A DNA stretch of 64,000 nt from Caballeronia turbans (GTDB lineage Bacteria; Pseudomonadota; Gammaproteobacteria; Burkholderiales; Burkholderiaceae). The stretch is from positions 248,001 to 312,000 of the forward strand of contig FCOD02000004.1 in the NCBI GenBank assembly GCA_001544655.2, in the 5' to 3' direction. A program made the position numbers and the translations under genes. Within the stretch, counting starts at the first letter, position 1. Each line of letters starts with the position of its first letter. Below the pieces are notes generated by a model. It saw nothing but the letters and a program-made list of their open reading frames with translations. It searched no databases and had not been told where the DNA came from. This document shows positions 28,152 to 34,274 of this stretch, one piece after another.

Positions 28152-28403
28152 ATGAAAACTGAATTGCGCCGCATCCTCGCCGAGTCCGCTCGTCTCGACG
28201 TGCCCATCGACACGCTTGCCGACGGCGACGATCTCTACGCCGCCGGTCTCTCCTCGCTCGCCACGGTTCACGTGATGCTTGCGATCGAAGACGAATTCGG
28301 CATCGAGATTCCCGATCACATGCTCACGCGCCGGCTCTTTTCGAGCGTCGATTCGCTCGCATCGGCCGTCAACGAACTGCGCCGTTCGCAGGCGGCAGCA
28401 TGA
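28152..28403 (+). CDS. Free-standing acyl (aminoacyl) carrier protein
   Basis: This 83-residue four-helix carrier protein has the phosphopantetheine site GLSSLAT, with Ser35 as the expected modified residue and Ser in place of the Asp of the usual DSL. Acidic helix II (VHVMLAIEDEFGIEIPD) is typical. Its stop overlaps the next gene's start by four bases. Next to an amino acid:carrier-protein ligase it most likely carries glycine or alanine as a thioester, as in Bradyrhizobium and Agrobacterium relatives, rather than fatty acids. Confidence 0.92.
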   Translation: MKTELRRILAESARLDVPIDTLADGDDLYAAGLSSLATVHVMLAIEDEFGIEIPDHMLTRRLFSSVDSLASAVNELRRSQAAA

Positions 28404-29653
28404 ACGCGCCCGCTCAAGAGCTTGAAATGGCCGAGCTCGCGCAGAGTGCGACAGCGCGCTGCGAAAGCGAGTTGATCGAGGCCGCGAAGCGGGTGGCCGC
28501 CGTCGCGGCAAAGCACGCCGATGCGGTCGATCGCGAAGCGCGCTTTCCCGCCGAAGCGGTCGCGGCGATGCGCGAGGAGCGCCTCTTCTCCGCGATGATC
28601 CCGACGATGCATGGCGGCGACGGCCTGTCGCTCACCGGCGTCGCGCGCTTGTGCGAGGCCCTGGCGCAAGGCTGCGCATCCTCCGCGATGATCTACGCGA
28701 TGCATCAGAGTCAGGTCGTATGCATCGTCGATCATGGCGCAAACGTGCCCTGGCAGCGCGACTTCCTTGCGCGCATGGTCAACGAGCAGTTGCTGCTCGC
28801 ATCGGCGACCTCGGAAGAGAACATCGGCGGCAACATGCGTACGAGCGCATGCGCGGTCGATCTCGTCGACAATGCGTTTCGCATCGAGAAGCTCGCACCG
28901 ACGATCTCTTACGGCAAGTATGCCGATTGCATTCTGGTGACGGCCCGCCGCCATCCCGATGCGCCGCCCTCCGACCAGGTGCTGATCGTGGCGCCGCGCG
29001 ATACGTTCACGCTCGAGCAGCGCGGCACGTGGGACACGCTCGGCATGCGCGGAACCTGCAGCGAAGGACATCGTCTCGTCGCGAGCGGCTTCGCGGAACA
29101 GATCCTGCCTGCGCCGTTCTCGCGAATCGCCGACGAAAGCATGCTGCCCGTATCGCACACCTTGTGGTCGTCGGTATGGTGCGGCATCGCAAGCGACGCG
29201 GCGAATCGCGCACATCAGTTCTTCCGCAATCAGGCTCGCGGCAAGCCCGCATTGCCGCCTTCGGCCGCGCGGCTTTCACAAGTGCTCACGCTCATCAAGA
29301 TGATGCAGGCGCGTCTGCGCGAATCGCTCGCCAATGTCGAAGCGGCTCAGGCCGATCGCACCGCGCGCAAGGCGAGCCAGAGCAATGACGACGACGCGCC
29401 GCTCACGGCGTCGATCGGCATCAATGCGGACCTGAACATGCTCAAGCTGGCGATTTCGCAATCGGCTGTGCATGTCGTGCAGGAAACACTGATGATCTGC
29501 GGCATGGCGGGCTACAAGAACGACACGCCGTTCAGCGTGGGGCGCCATCTGCGCGATCTGCATTCGGCGCCGCTCATGATCAGCAACGATCGCATCGAAT
29601 TGAACACGGCGAATCTGCTGCTTGCGCAGCGCGCCGCAACGGGGACCCTTTGA
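28400..29653 (+). CDS. Acyl-CoA dehydrogenase family flavoprotein, probably acts on carrier-bound acyl
   Basis: This 417-residue member of the acyl-CoA dehydrogenase superfamily has an N-terminal helical domain, a middle beta domain (about 150-250; ASATSEENIGGN, TISYGKYADCILV, GTWDTLGMRGTCSEG) and a C-terminal four-helix domain. The first codons overlap the carrier-protein stop by four bases (ATGA), so the two are coupled. In aminomalonyl-ACP and pyrrolyl-PCP pathways similar enzymes oxidise amino acids held on a carrier protein. The same chemistry on the aminoacyl carrier protein of this operon is my inference. FAD binding is expected. Confidence 0.85.
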   Translation: MNAPAQELEMAELAQSATARCESELIEAAKRVAAVAAKHADAVDREARFPAEAVAAMREERLFSAMIPTMHGGDGLSLTGVARLCEALAQGCASSAMIYAMHQSQVVCIVDHGANVPWQRDFLARMVNEQLLLASATSEENIGGNMRTSACAVDLVDNAFRIEKLAPTISYGKYADCILVTARRHPDAPPSDQVLIVAPRDTFTLEQRGTWDTLGMRGTCSEGHRLVASGFAEQILPAPFSRIADESMLPVSHTLWSSVWCGIASDAANRAHQFFRNQARGKPALPPSAARLSQVLTLIKMMQARLRESLANVEAAQADRTARKASQSNDDDAPLTASIGINADLNMLKLAISQSAVHVVQETLMICGMAGYKNDTPFSVGRHLRDLHSAPLMISNDRIELNTANLLLAQRAATGTL

Positions 29654-29657
29654 CGAT

Positions 29658-31727: not shown

Positions 31728-31760
31728 CGCCAAAGCCGCGCACATCGCGCGGCTTTGGCG
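31728..31760 (+). terminator. Perfect 14-bp hairpin after the aminoacyl-carrier operon
   Basis: CGCCAAAGCCGCGC and GCGCGGCTTTGGCG pair perfectly with a 5-nt loop (ACATC), starting one base after the DUF1839 stop codon. TCGTTCTCC follows, so the T-tract is poor. The site separates the four carrier-protein genes from the glycosidase 67 bases on. It probably attenuates rather than blocks transcription. Confidence 0.65.
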
Positions 31761-31793
31761 TCGTTCTCCGAATCCCGTCAACGAGGTAGGCAC

Positions 31794-34274
31794 ATGCACG
31801 TCCTGTCCGCGCACGCGCCGCGGCGTCTCTCCGAAGGCTGGCAATGCGTGAGCACGCCTGCGGGTGCGTGCGCGACGCCCGCATCGCTCGATGCGCTCAC
31901 CACGCAGTGGATCGAAGCGCCCGTACCTGGCACGATCGCGTCCGCCCTGCGCGCGAGCGGCGCCAGCGATGAAGCGCTTGCGCAGCCGTTCGCGTATTCG
32001 GATCACTGGTATCGCGTGACCTTGCGCGGGCACGGCAAGCGGCGCCTGCGCTTCAACGGGCTTGCGACCTTCGCCGAGATATGGCTCGATGGTCGCAAGC
32101 TGCTCGAATCGGATTCGATGTTCGTCGCGCATGATCTCGATGTCGATCTCGATGGCGAGCACACGCTTCATCTGTGCTTTCGCTCGATCGCGCCCGCGCT
32201 GGCCGCAAAACGAGGACGCGCGCGCTGGCGTCCGAAGCTCGCGCAACCCGCCACGTTGCGCAATGTGCGCACGACGCTCTTCGGGCATATGTCCGGCTGG
32301 TGCCCGGCCATTCAACCGGCGGGACCGTGGCGGGCGATCGAACTGATCGGCGAGTCGCGTGCGTGCATAGACAACGTGGACATGCGCACGCGTGTCGATG
32401 AAAGCACTGGCATTCTCGATGTCACGGTGCGCTACTTTCATGCGCAGGAACAAGCACCGGTTCATATCGAATGCGGCGAAGCGCAAGCCATGATGCAATG
32501 GCAGGACCCGTACACGGTCACGGGCCGCGTGCGCGTGCCGGACGTGCGCTTGTGGTATCCGCATACGCACGGCGAGCCGGCGCGCTATGCCGTGAAGCTC
32601 GGCGAAATCGAGCTCGGCGAAGTCGGCTTTCGCACCATCGAAGTCGATCGCGGCGTGGACGACAAGGGCTTTCAGCTCGTCGTGAACGGCGTGCCCGTGT
32701 TCGCGCGCGGTGCGTGCTGGACATCGGCGGATATCGTCGCGCTCGATGCGTCGCGCGAGAAGCTGGATCACATCTTCGGGTTGATGCGCGACGCGGGACT
32801 CAACATCGTTCGCGTGAGCGGCATCACGCTCTACGAATCCGACACGTTCTACGAACTCGCCGACAAGCACGGCGTGCTCGTGTGGCAGGACTTCGCGTTC
32901 GCGAACTTCGACTATCCCGACGACGAAGCCTTTCGCGCCAGCGTGCAACGCGAAGCCGAACAGTTCTTGACCCGCACGCGCCGCTTCGCTTCGCTCGCGG
33001 TGTTGTGCGGGGGAAGCGAAGTGCATCAGCAGGCGGCGATGCTCGGCCTTCCGTTCGAGGCGTATCAGCAACGCCTCTTCAATGAGCTCTTGCCGAATGC
33101 AGTTGCGATGCAACGGCCCGATGTTGCGTATGTCGTGAACTCGCCGAGCGCTGCGCCCGGCGATACCGTGTCGATGCCGTTCGGCACGCACGGCGGCATC
33201 ACGCATTACTACGGCGTGCCCGCGTATCAGCGTTCTTTCGATGACGTGCGCCGCTCGCAGGTGCGTTTCGCGTCGGAATGCCTCGCGTTCGCCAACGTGC
33301 CCGACGATGTCGCGCTGCGCGCCATGCCGAACCCGCGCGCCCATGAGCCGCGCTGGAAAACAGGCGTGCCGCGCGACCCCGGCTCGGCATGGGACTTCGA
33401 CGACGTGCGCGAGTACTATATGCAAACGCTTTATCGCATGGACGTGCCGCGTTTGCGCTATGAAAACCCCGAGCGCTATCTGGAGCTATCGCGCGCCGTC
33501 GTCGCCGATGTGATCGGTGCGGTGTTCTCGGAGTGGCGTCGCGAAGGATCGACCTGTGCGGGCGGCATCGTATGGAATCTGCTCGACGTGCGCCCGGGTG
33601 CGGGCTGGGGCGTCATCGACGTGCTCGGTGCGCCGAAGAGTGCGTTGCACGGACTCGCGCGCGTGCTGCGACCGGTGCAGGCGCTGATTATCGATGAAGG
33701 ACTCGACGGCCTCGACGTGCATCTCGTCAACGAGACCGCGCGCGAGATTCGTGCGCGCGTCGAACTGACTTGCCTGCGTGAAGGCGCGGTCAAGGTCGCG
33801 GGCGGTTCATGCGATGTCGTGTTGCAGGCGCGCAGCGTGCAGCGCGTGTCGTCGAATGCGCTGATCGGTGCGTTCTTCGACATCACATATGCATACCGCT
33901 TCGGCCCGCGTGCACACGACGCAACGCATGTCGTCTTGCGTGATGCCGATACGGGCGATGTGATGTCGGAAGCGTTCCATTTCCCCGATCCGTCGATTGG
34001 CGAGCGCCGCGATATCGGCTTGAATGCGACTGTCGAAAAAGACGACGAGGGCTTTTGTCTCGTCGTCGAAACGGCGCAGCTTGCGCGCTGGGTGCACGTG
34101 GTCGATCCGAACTACTTCGCGCGCATCGACTGGTTCCACCTCGCGCCAGGCAGCACGCGGCGCGTTCCGCTCATTGCGCGGCACGCGAACGTGAGCGCCG
34201 CGCCCGAGGGCGATGTATGCGCGATCAATGCGATACGGAGCGCCGCCTATCGCGCCGTCTATCGCGCCGTCTAA
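31794..34274 (+). CDS. Glycoside hydrolase family 2, beta-mannosidase-like
   Basis: This 826-residue enzyme has the family 2 layout: an N-terminal jelly-roll ([29 protein letters not shown]), an immunoglobulin-like domain and a TIM barrel from about residue 290. The acid/base Glu409 lies in [10 protein letters not shown], where Ser replaces the Asn of the usual N-E pair. The likely nucleophile is Glu495 in FASECLAF. The barrel otherwise fits ([20 protein letters not shown]). No signal peptide is visible, so it acts in the cytoplasm. The GAGGTAGG ribosome site fixes the ATG at 31794. It follows the aminoacyl-carrier genes, which suggests a glycan or glycoside is part of the same pathway. Confidence 0.85.

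What the first reader, a model, noticed from the sequence alone, without database searches (positions are those of the whole stretch)
28152..34274. Aminoacyl-carrier-protein pathway joined to a glycosidase
Four genes with 4-bp overlaps or a 4-bp gap encode a carrier protein, an acyl-CoA dehydrogenase homologue, an amino acid:carrier-protein ligase and a DUF1839 protein. Cys157, Glu202 and Cys305 of the ligase have the same 45 and 103 residue spacing I recall for the zinc ligands of Bll0957, so the loading enzyme looks intact. The inferred route is: activate a small amino acid, hold it on the carrier, oxidise it, and pass it on. A GH2 enzyme follows a hairpin. No product of such a locus is known to me, so it may be an undescribed small-molecule or glycan-modifying pathway.
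Basis: partly seen in the sequence, partly recalled or inferred. Interest (0 to 1): 0.82.

Follow-up and report, generated by a model that had tools for sequence, protein, structure and literature searches.

The report
Aminoacyl-carrier operon for bacterial polysaccharide decoration
Five neighbouring genes in a soil bacterium, kept together in many related bacteria, look like a small assembly line that activates an amino acid, alters it and attaches it to a sugar polymer; the arrangement was noted in print in 2010, but what it makes is still unknown.

Summary
In detail: carrier protein, acyl-CoA-dehydrogenase-fold flavoprotein, amino acid:carrier-protein ligase, DUF1839 and GH2 lie as described, in a Caballeronia genome. 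The genes are not usually apart: of the 80 best ligase loci, 76 carry all five in one order and strand, 3 end with the contig and 1 lacks two genes. The locus type is not undescribed: a 2010 note added in proof (PMC2922099) lists this neighbourhood and predicts amino-acid transfer to a cell-surface amino sugar. New support: 60 of 80 loci lie within 9 kb of exopolysaccharide core genes, against 0 of 12 ligase loci without DUF1839 and GH2; the GH2 carries the Ser-Glu motif of subfamily GH2_14, thought to admit substituted sugars; the flavoprotein lacks both usual catalytic glutamates; DUF1839 keeps its predicted catalytic Cys in 106 of 111 rows, and all 10 genomes seen with a Cys-less copy also hold an intact one. 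Best reading: a modified aminoacyl group is moved from the carrier to an amine of a polysaccharide precursor. Amino acid, acceptor and product are unproven; the window's own operon is not inside an exopolysaccharide cluster.

The parts
28152..28403 (+). Aminoacyl carrier protein (83 aa); phosphopantetheine attachment Ser35 in GLSS (by alignment)
   Evidence: PF00550 37.1 bits, NF005480/PRK07081 128.5 bits (cut-off 72), PDB 4h2w_C/2jq4; Ser35 in 119 of 119 aligned carriers
28400..29653 (+). ACAD-fold flavoprotein (417 aa) that lacks both canonical catalytic Glu positions
   Evidence: PF02771/PF00441; PDB profile hits; position 394 Ile/Val and 252 Ser/Ala/Thr/Cys in 121 of 121; His102, His253, Asn396, Arg398 invariant
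29658..30725 (+). Amino acid:[carrier protein] ligase (355 aa), Bll0957 type
   Evidence: NF005479 513 bits, cut-off 357; 4h2w/3mey E 5e-88/7e-87; Cys157, Glu202, Cys305 in 129 of 129
30722..31726 (+). DUF1839 protein (334 aa), proposed papain-like aminoacyltransferase; Cys38, Thr136, His154
   Evidence: PF08893 429 bits; papain-like C-(T/S)-H triad from PMC10318531 (passages), assigned to these residues by me; Cys38 106/111, His154 111/111, position 136 Thr 103 / Ser 6 / Ala 2 of 111
31727..31761 (+). Hairpin, 15-bp perfect stem, 5-nt loop, no T-run
   Evidence: inverted repeat and fold; pairs counted in 8 Caballeronia sequences; lineage-limited
31794..34274 (+). GH2 retaining beta-glycosidase (826 aa), GH2_14-like; Glu409 acid/base, Glu495 nucleophile by alignment (roles recalled)
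   Evidence: PF22666; PDB beta-mannosidase 5n6u 342 bits; Ser408 102/104, Glu409 103/104, Glu495 104/104; no strongly hydrophobic stretch in the first 40 residues in 104 of 104, a crude check
34271..35206 (-). Gfo/Idh/MocA oxidoreductase, converging neighbour with 4-bp overlap; not part of the core unit
   Evidence: PF01408; seen in 6 of 80 relative loci
19005..21082 (-). Polysaccharide deacetylase (19005-19859) and GT4 glycosyltransferase (19856-21082), 4-bp overlap, 7 kb from the operon; a possible source of free sugar amines, link to the operon unproven
   Evidence: PF01522 79 bits and PF00534 133 bits; found when the window was searched with the neighbour profiles

Best explanation
A five-gene cytoplasmic module that makes a carrier-bound, redox-modified aminoacyl group and transfers it to an amine of a polysaccharide precursor. 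(1) The ligase adenylates a small amino acid (Gly or Ala by analogy) and loads it on the phosphopantetheine of Ser35 of the carrier [strong inference from orthology]. (2) The ACAD-fold flavoprotein modifies the aminoacyl thioester, more likely at N or C-alpha (imine formation or N-oxygenation) than by ordinary alpha,beta-desaturation [inference]. (3) DUF1839, a predicted papain-like Cys enzyme, takes the acyl group on Cys38 and passes it to an amino group of a sugar, as the butirosin acyltransferase BtrH does [inference]. (4) The cytosolic GH2, with a pocket said to be opened for substituted sugars, trims or proofreads the modified glycoside [weak inference]. In many Burkholderiaceae the target is presumably the adjacent exopolysaccharide. 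Nothing in steps 1-4 has been shown for these proteins.
For: Five genes in fixed order in 76 of 80 ligase loci, 1 exception not due to contig ends. DUF1839 with ligase in 16 of 16 among 398 Pseudomonadota and in 8 of 8 over cut-off among 399 Burkholderiales (Fisher 2e-21 and 6e-16, not corrected for kinship). Pairwise protein distances of the five genes correlate at r 0.82-0.96 over 102 loci (no unrelated control gene). EPS core genes (sugar phosphotransferase, Wzy, Wza-type export) within 9 kb in 60 of 80 loci, and in 0 of 12 ligase+ACAD loci without DUF1839/GH2. The window genome's second DUF1839 gene lies 1.8 kb from one of only 3 Bac_transf genes in 7.35 Mb. The GH2 has the Ser-Glu motif (Ser 102 of 104) that PMC12243196 reports for GH2_14 and relates to substituted sugars. 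In B. diazoefficiens the ligase bll0957 and the ACAD bll0958 are both raised 3.0-fold in a phaR mutant (table passage). The window holds a polysaccharide deacetylase/GT4 pair 7 kb from the operon. PMC2922099 reached the same function from gene neighbourhoods.
Against: No product, acceptor or activity is known to me for any such operon. The window's own operon is not beside EPS core genes; 10 of 15 Caballeronia and 5 of 5 Azospirillum loci are not either. In Priestia the carrier, ACAD and ligase sit with ATP-grasp, alanine racemase and alanine permease genes and no DUF1839 or GH2, so the trio can serve another product. One genome (G346, in a third sampled set) keeps four genes but has no ligase match. 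The best PDB hit of the flavoprotein, 7p98, named an acyl-CoA dehydrogenase, has Thr at the same Glu position (alignment), so losing that Glu does not rule out a dehydrogenase. GH2_14 enzymes tested so far cleave pNP-beta-galactoside slowly and no mannobiose or mannotriose. DUF1839 gave no PDB match and no BtrH_N match; the papain-like assignment rests on PMC10318531.
Confidence: 0.5

Rival explanations
1. The operon makes a free small molecule (an oxidised amino acid, amide or dipeptide) rather than decorating a glycan; DUF1839 couples the carrier-bound acyl group to a small amine and the GH2 releases the active compound from a stored glycoside.
For: Core trio with ATP-grasp, alanine racemase and permease in Priestia; type-2 loci with ligase and ACAD but no EPS genes found; operons on plasmids in differing surroundings.
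Against: Tie to EPS core genes in 60 of 80 type-1 loci and in 0 of 12 type-2 loci; no transporter among the ten recurrent neighbours that I named by Pfam, apart from the polysaccharide export protein.
Confidence: 0.25
2. The ACAD-like enzyme is a plain dehydrogenase making dehydroalanyl- or iminoacyl-carrier, and DUF1839 is a thioesterase that releases it; the role is redox or nitrogen metabolism, with the glycosidase supplying sugar amines.
For: PDB profile: proteins named ACAD score highest, and the best of them lacks the same Glu; ligase and ACAD adjacent in all 80 loci and in 23 of 23 over-cut-off loci fetched outside Burkholderiaceae.
Against: Both canonical glutamates are absent in 121 of 121; the tie of DUF1839 to GH2 and EPS genes is left unexplained.
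Confidence: 0.12
3. The aminoacyl group is transferred to a protein or lipid of the envelope, not to a sugar.
For: Papain-like folds include transglutaminases (PMC10318531, passages); carrier-to-envelope aminoacylation is known for D-alanine (recalled; DltC-type carrier model matches weakly, 23 bits against a cut-off of 68).
Against: The GH2 looks cytosolic (crude check); a glycosidase is included in 76 of 80 loci.
Confidence: 0.1

Closest known systems
Synthetase-like ligase / ACP / redox enzyme / Atu2574 / glycosidase neighbourhood (PMC2922099, 2010, note added in proof)
   Same: Same kinds of genes in one neighbourhood, with polysaccharide genes nearby in relatives; same predicted chemistry
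   Different: The passages seen give no mechanism for the transferase; here the DUF1839 Cys pattern, the ACAD residue loss, the GH2_14 motif and the type-1/type-2 split are added; the window copy itself is away from EPS core genes. That Atu2574 is DUF1839 was not tested
Bll0957 amino acid:[carrier protein] ligase with its carrier (PDB 3mey, 4h2w)
   Same: Ligase and carrier are close homologues; metal-ligand spacing identical
   Different: bll0957 is followed by an ACAD gene bll0958; whether DUF1839 and GH2 are near it was not checked
Butirosin acyltransferase BtrH
   Same: Works like: papain-like enzyme linked to a carrier protein:aminoglycoside transfer (PMC10318531, passages)
   Different: No BtrH_N match by Pfam; DUF1839 has a C-(T/S)-H arrangement
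GH2_14 glycoside hydrolases (PMC12243196)
   Same: Ser-Glu in place of Asn-Glu, no evident signal peptide, nearest relatives beta-mannosidases
   Different: The window enzyme has Ser, not Gly, at what I take to be the His/Trp position (Gly in 73 of 104); subfamily tree not rebuilt
Flavin nitrososynthase-type proteins (PDB 3m9v, 4kcf, 4zxv DnmZ, 3mxl)
   Same: Profile hits on the same fold; they act on amino groups (recalled)
   Different: Scores lie below those of five proteins named ACAD; reaction untested

Membership tests
Amino acid:[acyl-carrier-protein] ligase (NF005479) | Score over the curated cut-off | tested here: met
   513.3 bits, cut-off 357
Amino acid:[acyl-carrier-protein] ligase (NF005479) | Metal ligands Cys, Glu, Cys at Bll0957 spacing (zinc role recalled) | tested here: met
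   (129 of 129)
Amino acid:[acyl-carrier-protein] ligase (NF005479) | Loads an amino acid on its carrier | not testable with these tools
   needs purified proteins
Aminoacyl carrier protein (NF005480) | Cut-off score and phosphopantetheine serine | tested here: met
   128.5 bits, cut-off 72; Ser35 119 of 119
Acyl-CoA dehydrogenase (functional) | Catalytic Glu at the MCAD or IVD position (positions recalled) | tested here: not met
   Ile/Val at 394 and Ser/Ala/Thr/Cys at 252 in 121 of 121, positions mapped by me from alignments
Acyl-CoA dehydrogenase superfamily (fold) | Pfam domain scores over cut-off | tested here: met
   PF02771 50.3 (22.9) and PF00441 27.3 (22.4) bits
DUF1839 | PF08893 score over cut-off | tested here: met
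   429.3 bits, cut-off 22.5
Papain-like superfamily | C-(T/S)-H triad and fold | tested here: inconclusive
   Cys38, Thr136, His154 present and conserved, residue assignment mine from the order stated in PMC10318531; fold not tested, prediction tool off
BtrH-type acyltransferase | BtrH_N (PF14399) similarity | tested here: not met
   only PF08893 reported at E 0.001
GH2_14 | Ser-Glu motif | tested here: met
   Ser408-Glu409 in the window; Ser 102 and Glu 103 of 104
GH2_14 | Gly at the conserved His/Trp position | tested here: inconclusive
   window has Ser342; of 104: Gly 73, Ser 17, Pro 9, Ala 3, Val 1, Ile 1; position assigned by me from the alignment to 5n6u
2010 neighbourhood class (PMC2922099) | ligase, ACP, redox enzyme, conserved ORF and glycosidase together | tested here: met
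2010 neighbourhood class (PMC2922099) | Linked polysaccharide genes | tested here: inconclusive
   60 of 80 relatives have an EPS core gene within 9 kb; the window has none, only a GT4/polysaccharide deacetylase pair 7 kb away

The most novel reading that the evidence does not exclude
A carrier-protein route for decorating bacterial exopolysaccharide: a class II synthetase relative loads an amino acid, a flavoenzyme without ACAD bases turns it into an N- or C-alpha-oxidised acyl group, a papain-like DUF1839 transferase puts it on a 2-amino sugar, and a GH2_14 enzyme whose pocket fits that substituent edits the glycoside. In Caballeronia and Cupriavidus an active and a Cys-less DUF1839 have been kept in the same genome, possibly as catalytic and scaffolding partners, the latter at the EPS cluster in Caballeronia.
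Probability: 0.3. Interest if true: 0.75.

Novelty: new member of a known kind. Interest (0 to 1): 0.5.

Why it matters
The biological role of synthetase-like carrier ligases has, as far as I know, been open since 2010. The tight five-gene unit, its specific link to exopolysaccharide genes and the unusual glycosidase pocket give a narrow, testable hypothesis: look for an aminoacyl substituent on an amino sugar of Paraburkholderia exopolysaccharide. If true, it adds another way, beside tRNA-dependent and DltA-type routes (recalled), to feed amino acids into envelope polymers.

Tried and rejected
Rejected: 'the genes are usually apart'. Rejected: 'GH2 is an accidental neighbour' (in 97 of 104 neighbourhood loci by the clustering; r 0.85-0.96 with the other genes). 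Rejected as core: the Gfo/Idh gene (6 of 80). Considered: hairpin as intrinsic terminator; no T-run, not found by the terminator scan, and GH2 starts within 30 bp of DUF1839 in 41 of 94 loci, so at most a partial terminator or mRNA stabiliser in Caballeronia.

Led nowhere: PDB profile search with DUF1839 (one meaningless hit); BtrH_N in 26 relatives (0 of 26), so no profile comparison was made; paper searches for such pathways (0 papers; 11 listed, none on this by title; badly formed). Mocibob 2010 (PMC2930448) is not held. Eight neighbour proteins from three type-2 loci showed no shared family.

One search also left out L006, L023, L035 and L036. Nine loci from plasmid records or the own genome were added by hand. 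In one search the DUF1839 row of L024 and L107 is the non-operon copy. Gene starts are my script's guesses. The EPS profiles were built from clusters of the same loci, of which one member each was named by Pfam for most.
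Full report
WHAT IS THERE. The window is from a Caballeronia genome: its stretch 27700-35300 matches named Caballeronia plasmid records at up to 89.5% DNA identity, and it lies at G000:C59:248001-312000. Ligase Cys157, Glu202 and Cys305 align without gaps to Bll0957 chain residues 151, 196 and 299; that these bind zinc is recalled.

CO-OCCURRENCE. With the window proteins as queries, 75 of 80 have CP-ACAD-ligase-DUF1839-GH2 in this order on one strand. Re-examining the other five with more queries: L106 is complete, L102 and L117 run off the contig after DUF1839, L089 runs off 0.8 kb after the ligase, and L053 (C. 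glathei) lacks DUF1839 and GH2 in the 9 kb after the ligase. In an even draw of 398 Pseudomonadota genomes, DUF1839 occurs in 16 and the ligase (over cut-off) in 28; all 16 are among the 28. I fetched the 23 of these 28 ligase loci that lie outside the window's family: 11 are five-gene operons; 12 have ligase next to ACAD without DUF1839 or GH2, and 10 of these 12 have a carrier on the other strand ('type 2'). In 399 Burkholderiales, DUF1839 over cut-off is in 8, the ligase in 9, both in 8; a further DUF1839 match, in G727, is below the cut-off and has no listed ligase. The odd ligase genome (G518) is type 2. In 369 genomes of the class, 3 besides the own one have DUF1839: two with five genes (the carrier of one cut by the contig end), while G346 has CP-ACAD-DUF1839-GH2 and no ligase match in its genome. 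Named plasmid records of Azospirillum, Rhizobium, Phyllobacterium and Mycetohabitans show the same five genes. Genes are tightly packed: median gaps -4, 1, -1 and 57 bp in 94 loci. Pairwise distances of the five proteins correlate (r 0.82-0.96, 102 loci); kinship alone gives some of this and no control gene was run.

LINK TO POLYSACCHARIDE GENES. Clustering ORFs of 104 operon loci and naming ten recurrent clusters by Pfam shows a Crp-type regulator, a sugar phosphotransferase (Bac_transf), a Wzy/O-antigen-ligase protein, a polysaccharide export protein, several glycosyltransferases and a GDP-mannose-pyrophosphorylase-like protein. Profile searches find at least one EPS core gene (Bac_transf, Wzy or export) within 9 kb in 60 of 80 loci: Burkholderia 18/18, Paraburkholderia 28/32, six further strains labelled Burkholderia sp. 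5/6, Cupriavidus 2/2, Pararobbsia 1/1, a MAG 1/1, Caballeronia 5/15, Azospirillum 0/5; in the 12 type-2 loci 0, and in 8 loci of more distant ligase relatives 0. The window has no match to the Crp, Bac_transf, Wzy, export, GT2 or ManC profiles; it does have a GT4 glycosyltransferase (19856-21082, -) overlapping by 4 bp a polysaccharide deacetylase gene (19005-19859), 7 kb from the operon. A deacetylase could free sugar amines, but a link to the operon is unproven. The same genome has a second DUF1839 on contig C76 between a glycosyltransferase and a Crp/Bac_transf pair, one of only 3 Bac_transf genes in 7.35 Mb. In Tsukamurella (Actinomycetota) a carrier and ligase, without ACAD or DUF1839 nearby, lie among glycosyltransferase genes. 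In Priestia carrier, ACAD and ligase lie with ATP-grasp, alanine racemase and permease genes, which suggests that the trio is a supply module usable for more than one product.

THE TRANSFERASE. DUF1839 has no PDB relative by sequence. PMC10318531 (passages) places it in the papain-like superfamily with a C-(T/S)-H triad and says that it might process cell-wall glycans. In 111 aligned rows Cys38 is kept in 106, His154 in 111, and position 136 is Thr (103), Ser (6) or Ala (2). The five Cys-less rows come from four genomes, since L026 and L116 are the same contig: three Cupriavidus-type operon copies (Arg/Gln) and the own genome's second copy (Ala). All four genomes also hold a Cys-intact copy. 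C. metallidurans CH34 repeats the pattern. Of six further genomes that I searched, five Caballeronia hold a second, Cys-to-Ala copy next to Crp and glycosyltransferase genes beside an intact operon copy, and the sixth (Burkholderia sp. Leaf177) has a single intact copy. That is 10 of 10 genomes with a Cys-less copy. The pattern seems to have two origins and is kept over several species, which suggests a working partner rather than decay; no test of selection was run.

THE FLAVOPROTEIN. It is an ACAD-fold protein, but at the two places where ACADs carry their catalytic Glu (recalled: MCAD and IVD types; mapped by me from the alignments) it has Ile/Val and Ser/Ala/Thr/Cys in 121 of 121, with invariant His102, His253, Asn396 and Arg398. 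Proteins named ACAD still score highest in the PDB, and the best of them (7p98) has Thr at the first of these places; nitrososynthase-type proteins and DszC follow. I infer a modified chemistry, such as imine formation or N-oxygenation, not simple desaturation; this is unproven. In B. diazoefficiens bll0957 (ligase) and bll0958 (ACAD) both rise 3.0-fold in a phaR mutant (table passage of PMC10888616).

THE GLYCOSIDASE. The GH2 profile matches beta-mannosidases over nearly its whole length, with both catalytic Glu present (Glu409 103/104, Glu495 104/104) but Ser before Glu409 in 102 of 104. PMC12243196 (section 22 and passages) describes for GH2_14 this Ser-Glu motif, a Gly at a His/Trp position and the fewest signal peptides. 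Two tested members cleave pNP-beta-galactoside slowly and not mannobiose or mannotriose, and the authors suggest that the pocket may take substituted substrates; beta-glucosaminidases of GH2_16 carry Ser-Asp. The window enzyme has Ser at what I take to be the second position (Gly in 73 of 104, never His or Trp), so filing under GH2_14 is likely but not settled. It is the only Glyco_hydro_2_N2 match in the genome.

PRIOR ART. PMC2922099 (passages), in a note added in proof of 2010, describes the ligase's neighbours as ACP, a monooxygenase/dehydrogenase, a conserved uncharacterised ORF (Atu2574), a glycosidase and liposaccharide genes, and predicts amide transfer of the amino acid to a cell-surface amino sugar with redox modification of the aminoacyl group. 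I did not test directly that Atu2574 is DUF1839; its place and description fit. So the locus type and the main idea are in print; I found no product. My searches for later work on such operons found nothing on them beyond the papers cited (only open-licence papers are held).

VERDICT. Observation confirmed; interpretation partly supported; a new member of a known but biochemically unproven kind. The DUF1839 pairing, the type-1/type-2 contrast in EPS linkage and the fit of GH2_14 features with the amino-sugar hypothesis are, as far as my searches show, additions.

Noticed in passing
L006:8542-9570 (G000:C76:81628-82554): Second DUF1839 gene of the same genome, Cys38 replaced by Ala, between a glycosyltransferase and a Crp/Bac_transf pair; such a copy is kept in five sister genomes.
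   Followed up: yes
L024:7401-8381 and 12232-13299; L107; L187: Cupriavidus: operon copy of DUF1839 lacks the Cys, a second copy close by on the other strand keeps it.
   Followed up: yes
window 19005-21082: Polysaccharide deacetylase and GT4 glycosyltransferase genes overlapping by 4 bp, 7 kb upstream of the operon; a GT4 match also lies upstream in C. insecticola (L005:561-1748).
   Followed up: partly
window 31727-31761: 15-bp perfect hairpin between DUF1839 and GH2, with some compensatory changes across Caballeronia but no T-run.
   Followed up: partly
L022:6602-11789 (G346): Operon without ligase in a genome that has no ligase match; its GH2 has Thr-Asp instead of Ser-Glu.
   Followed up: partly
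L035:8142-16689 (Priestia megaterium plasmid): holo-ACP synthase, carrier, ACAD, ligase, ATP-grasp, alanine permease and racemase: looks like a small peptide pathway built on the same trio.
   Followed up: no
L036:6731-16900 (Tsukamurella plasmid): Carrier and ligase among glycosyltransferases and a polyprenyl glycosylphosphotransferase, without ACAD, DUF1839 or GH2 in the stretch.
   Followed up: no
L031:13406-15184, L034:13336-15147, L033:13599-15449 and others: Protein of about 600 aa with two alpha/beta-hydrolase-like stretches, often directly after or near GH2; no match in the window.
   Followed up: partly
L158-L163, L165-L170: Type-2 loci: ligase next to ACAD, carrier usually divergent, no shared further partner seen.
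   Followed up: partly
window 4784-5986: Choloylglycine-hydrolase/penicillin-amidase-like Ntn protein (PF02275), far from the operon.
   Followed up: no
window 43320-48175: FUSC-type aromatic acid efflux transporter with membrane fusion and outer-membrane efflux genes.
   Followed up: no
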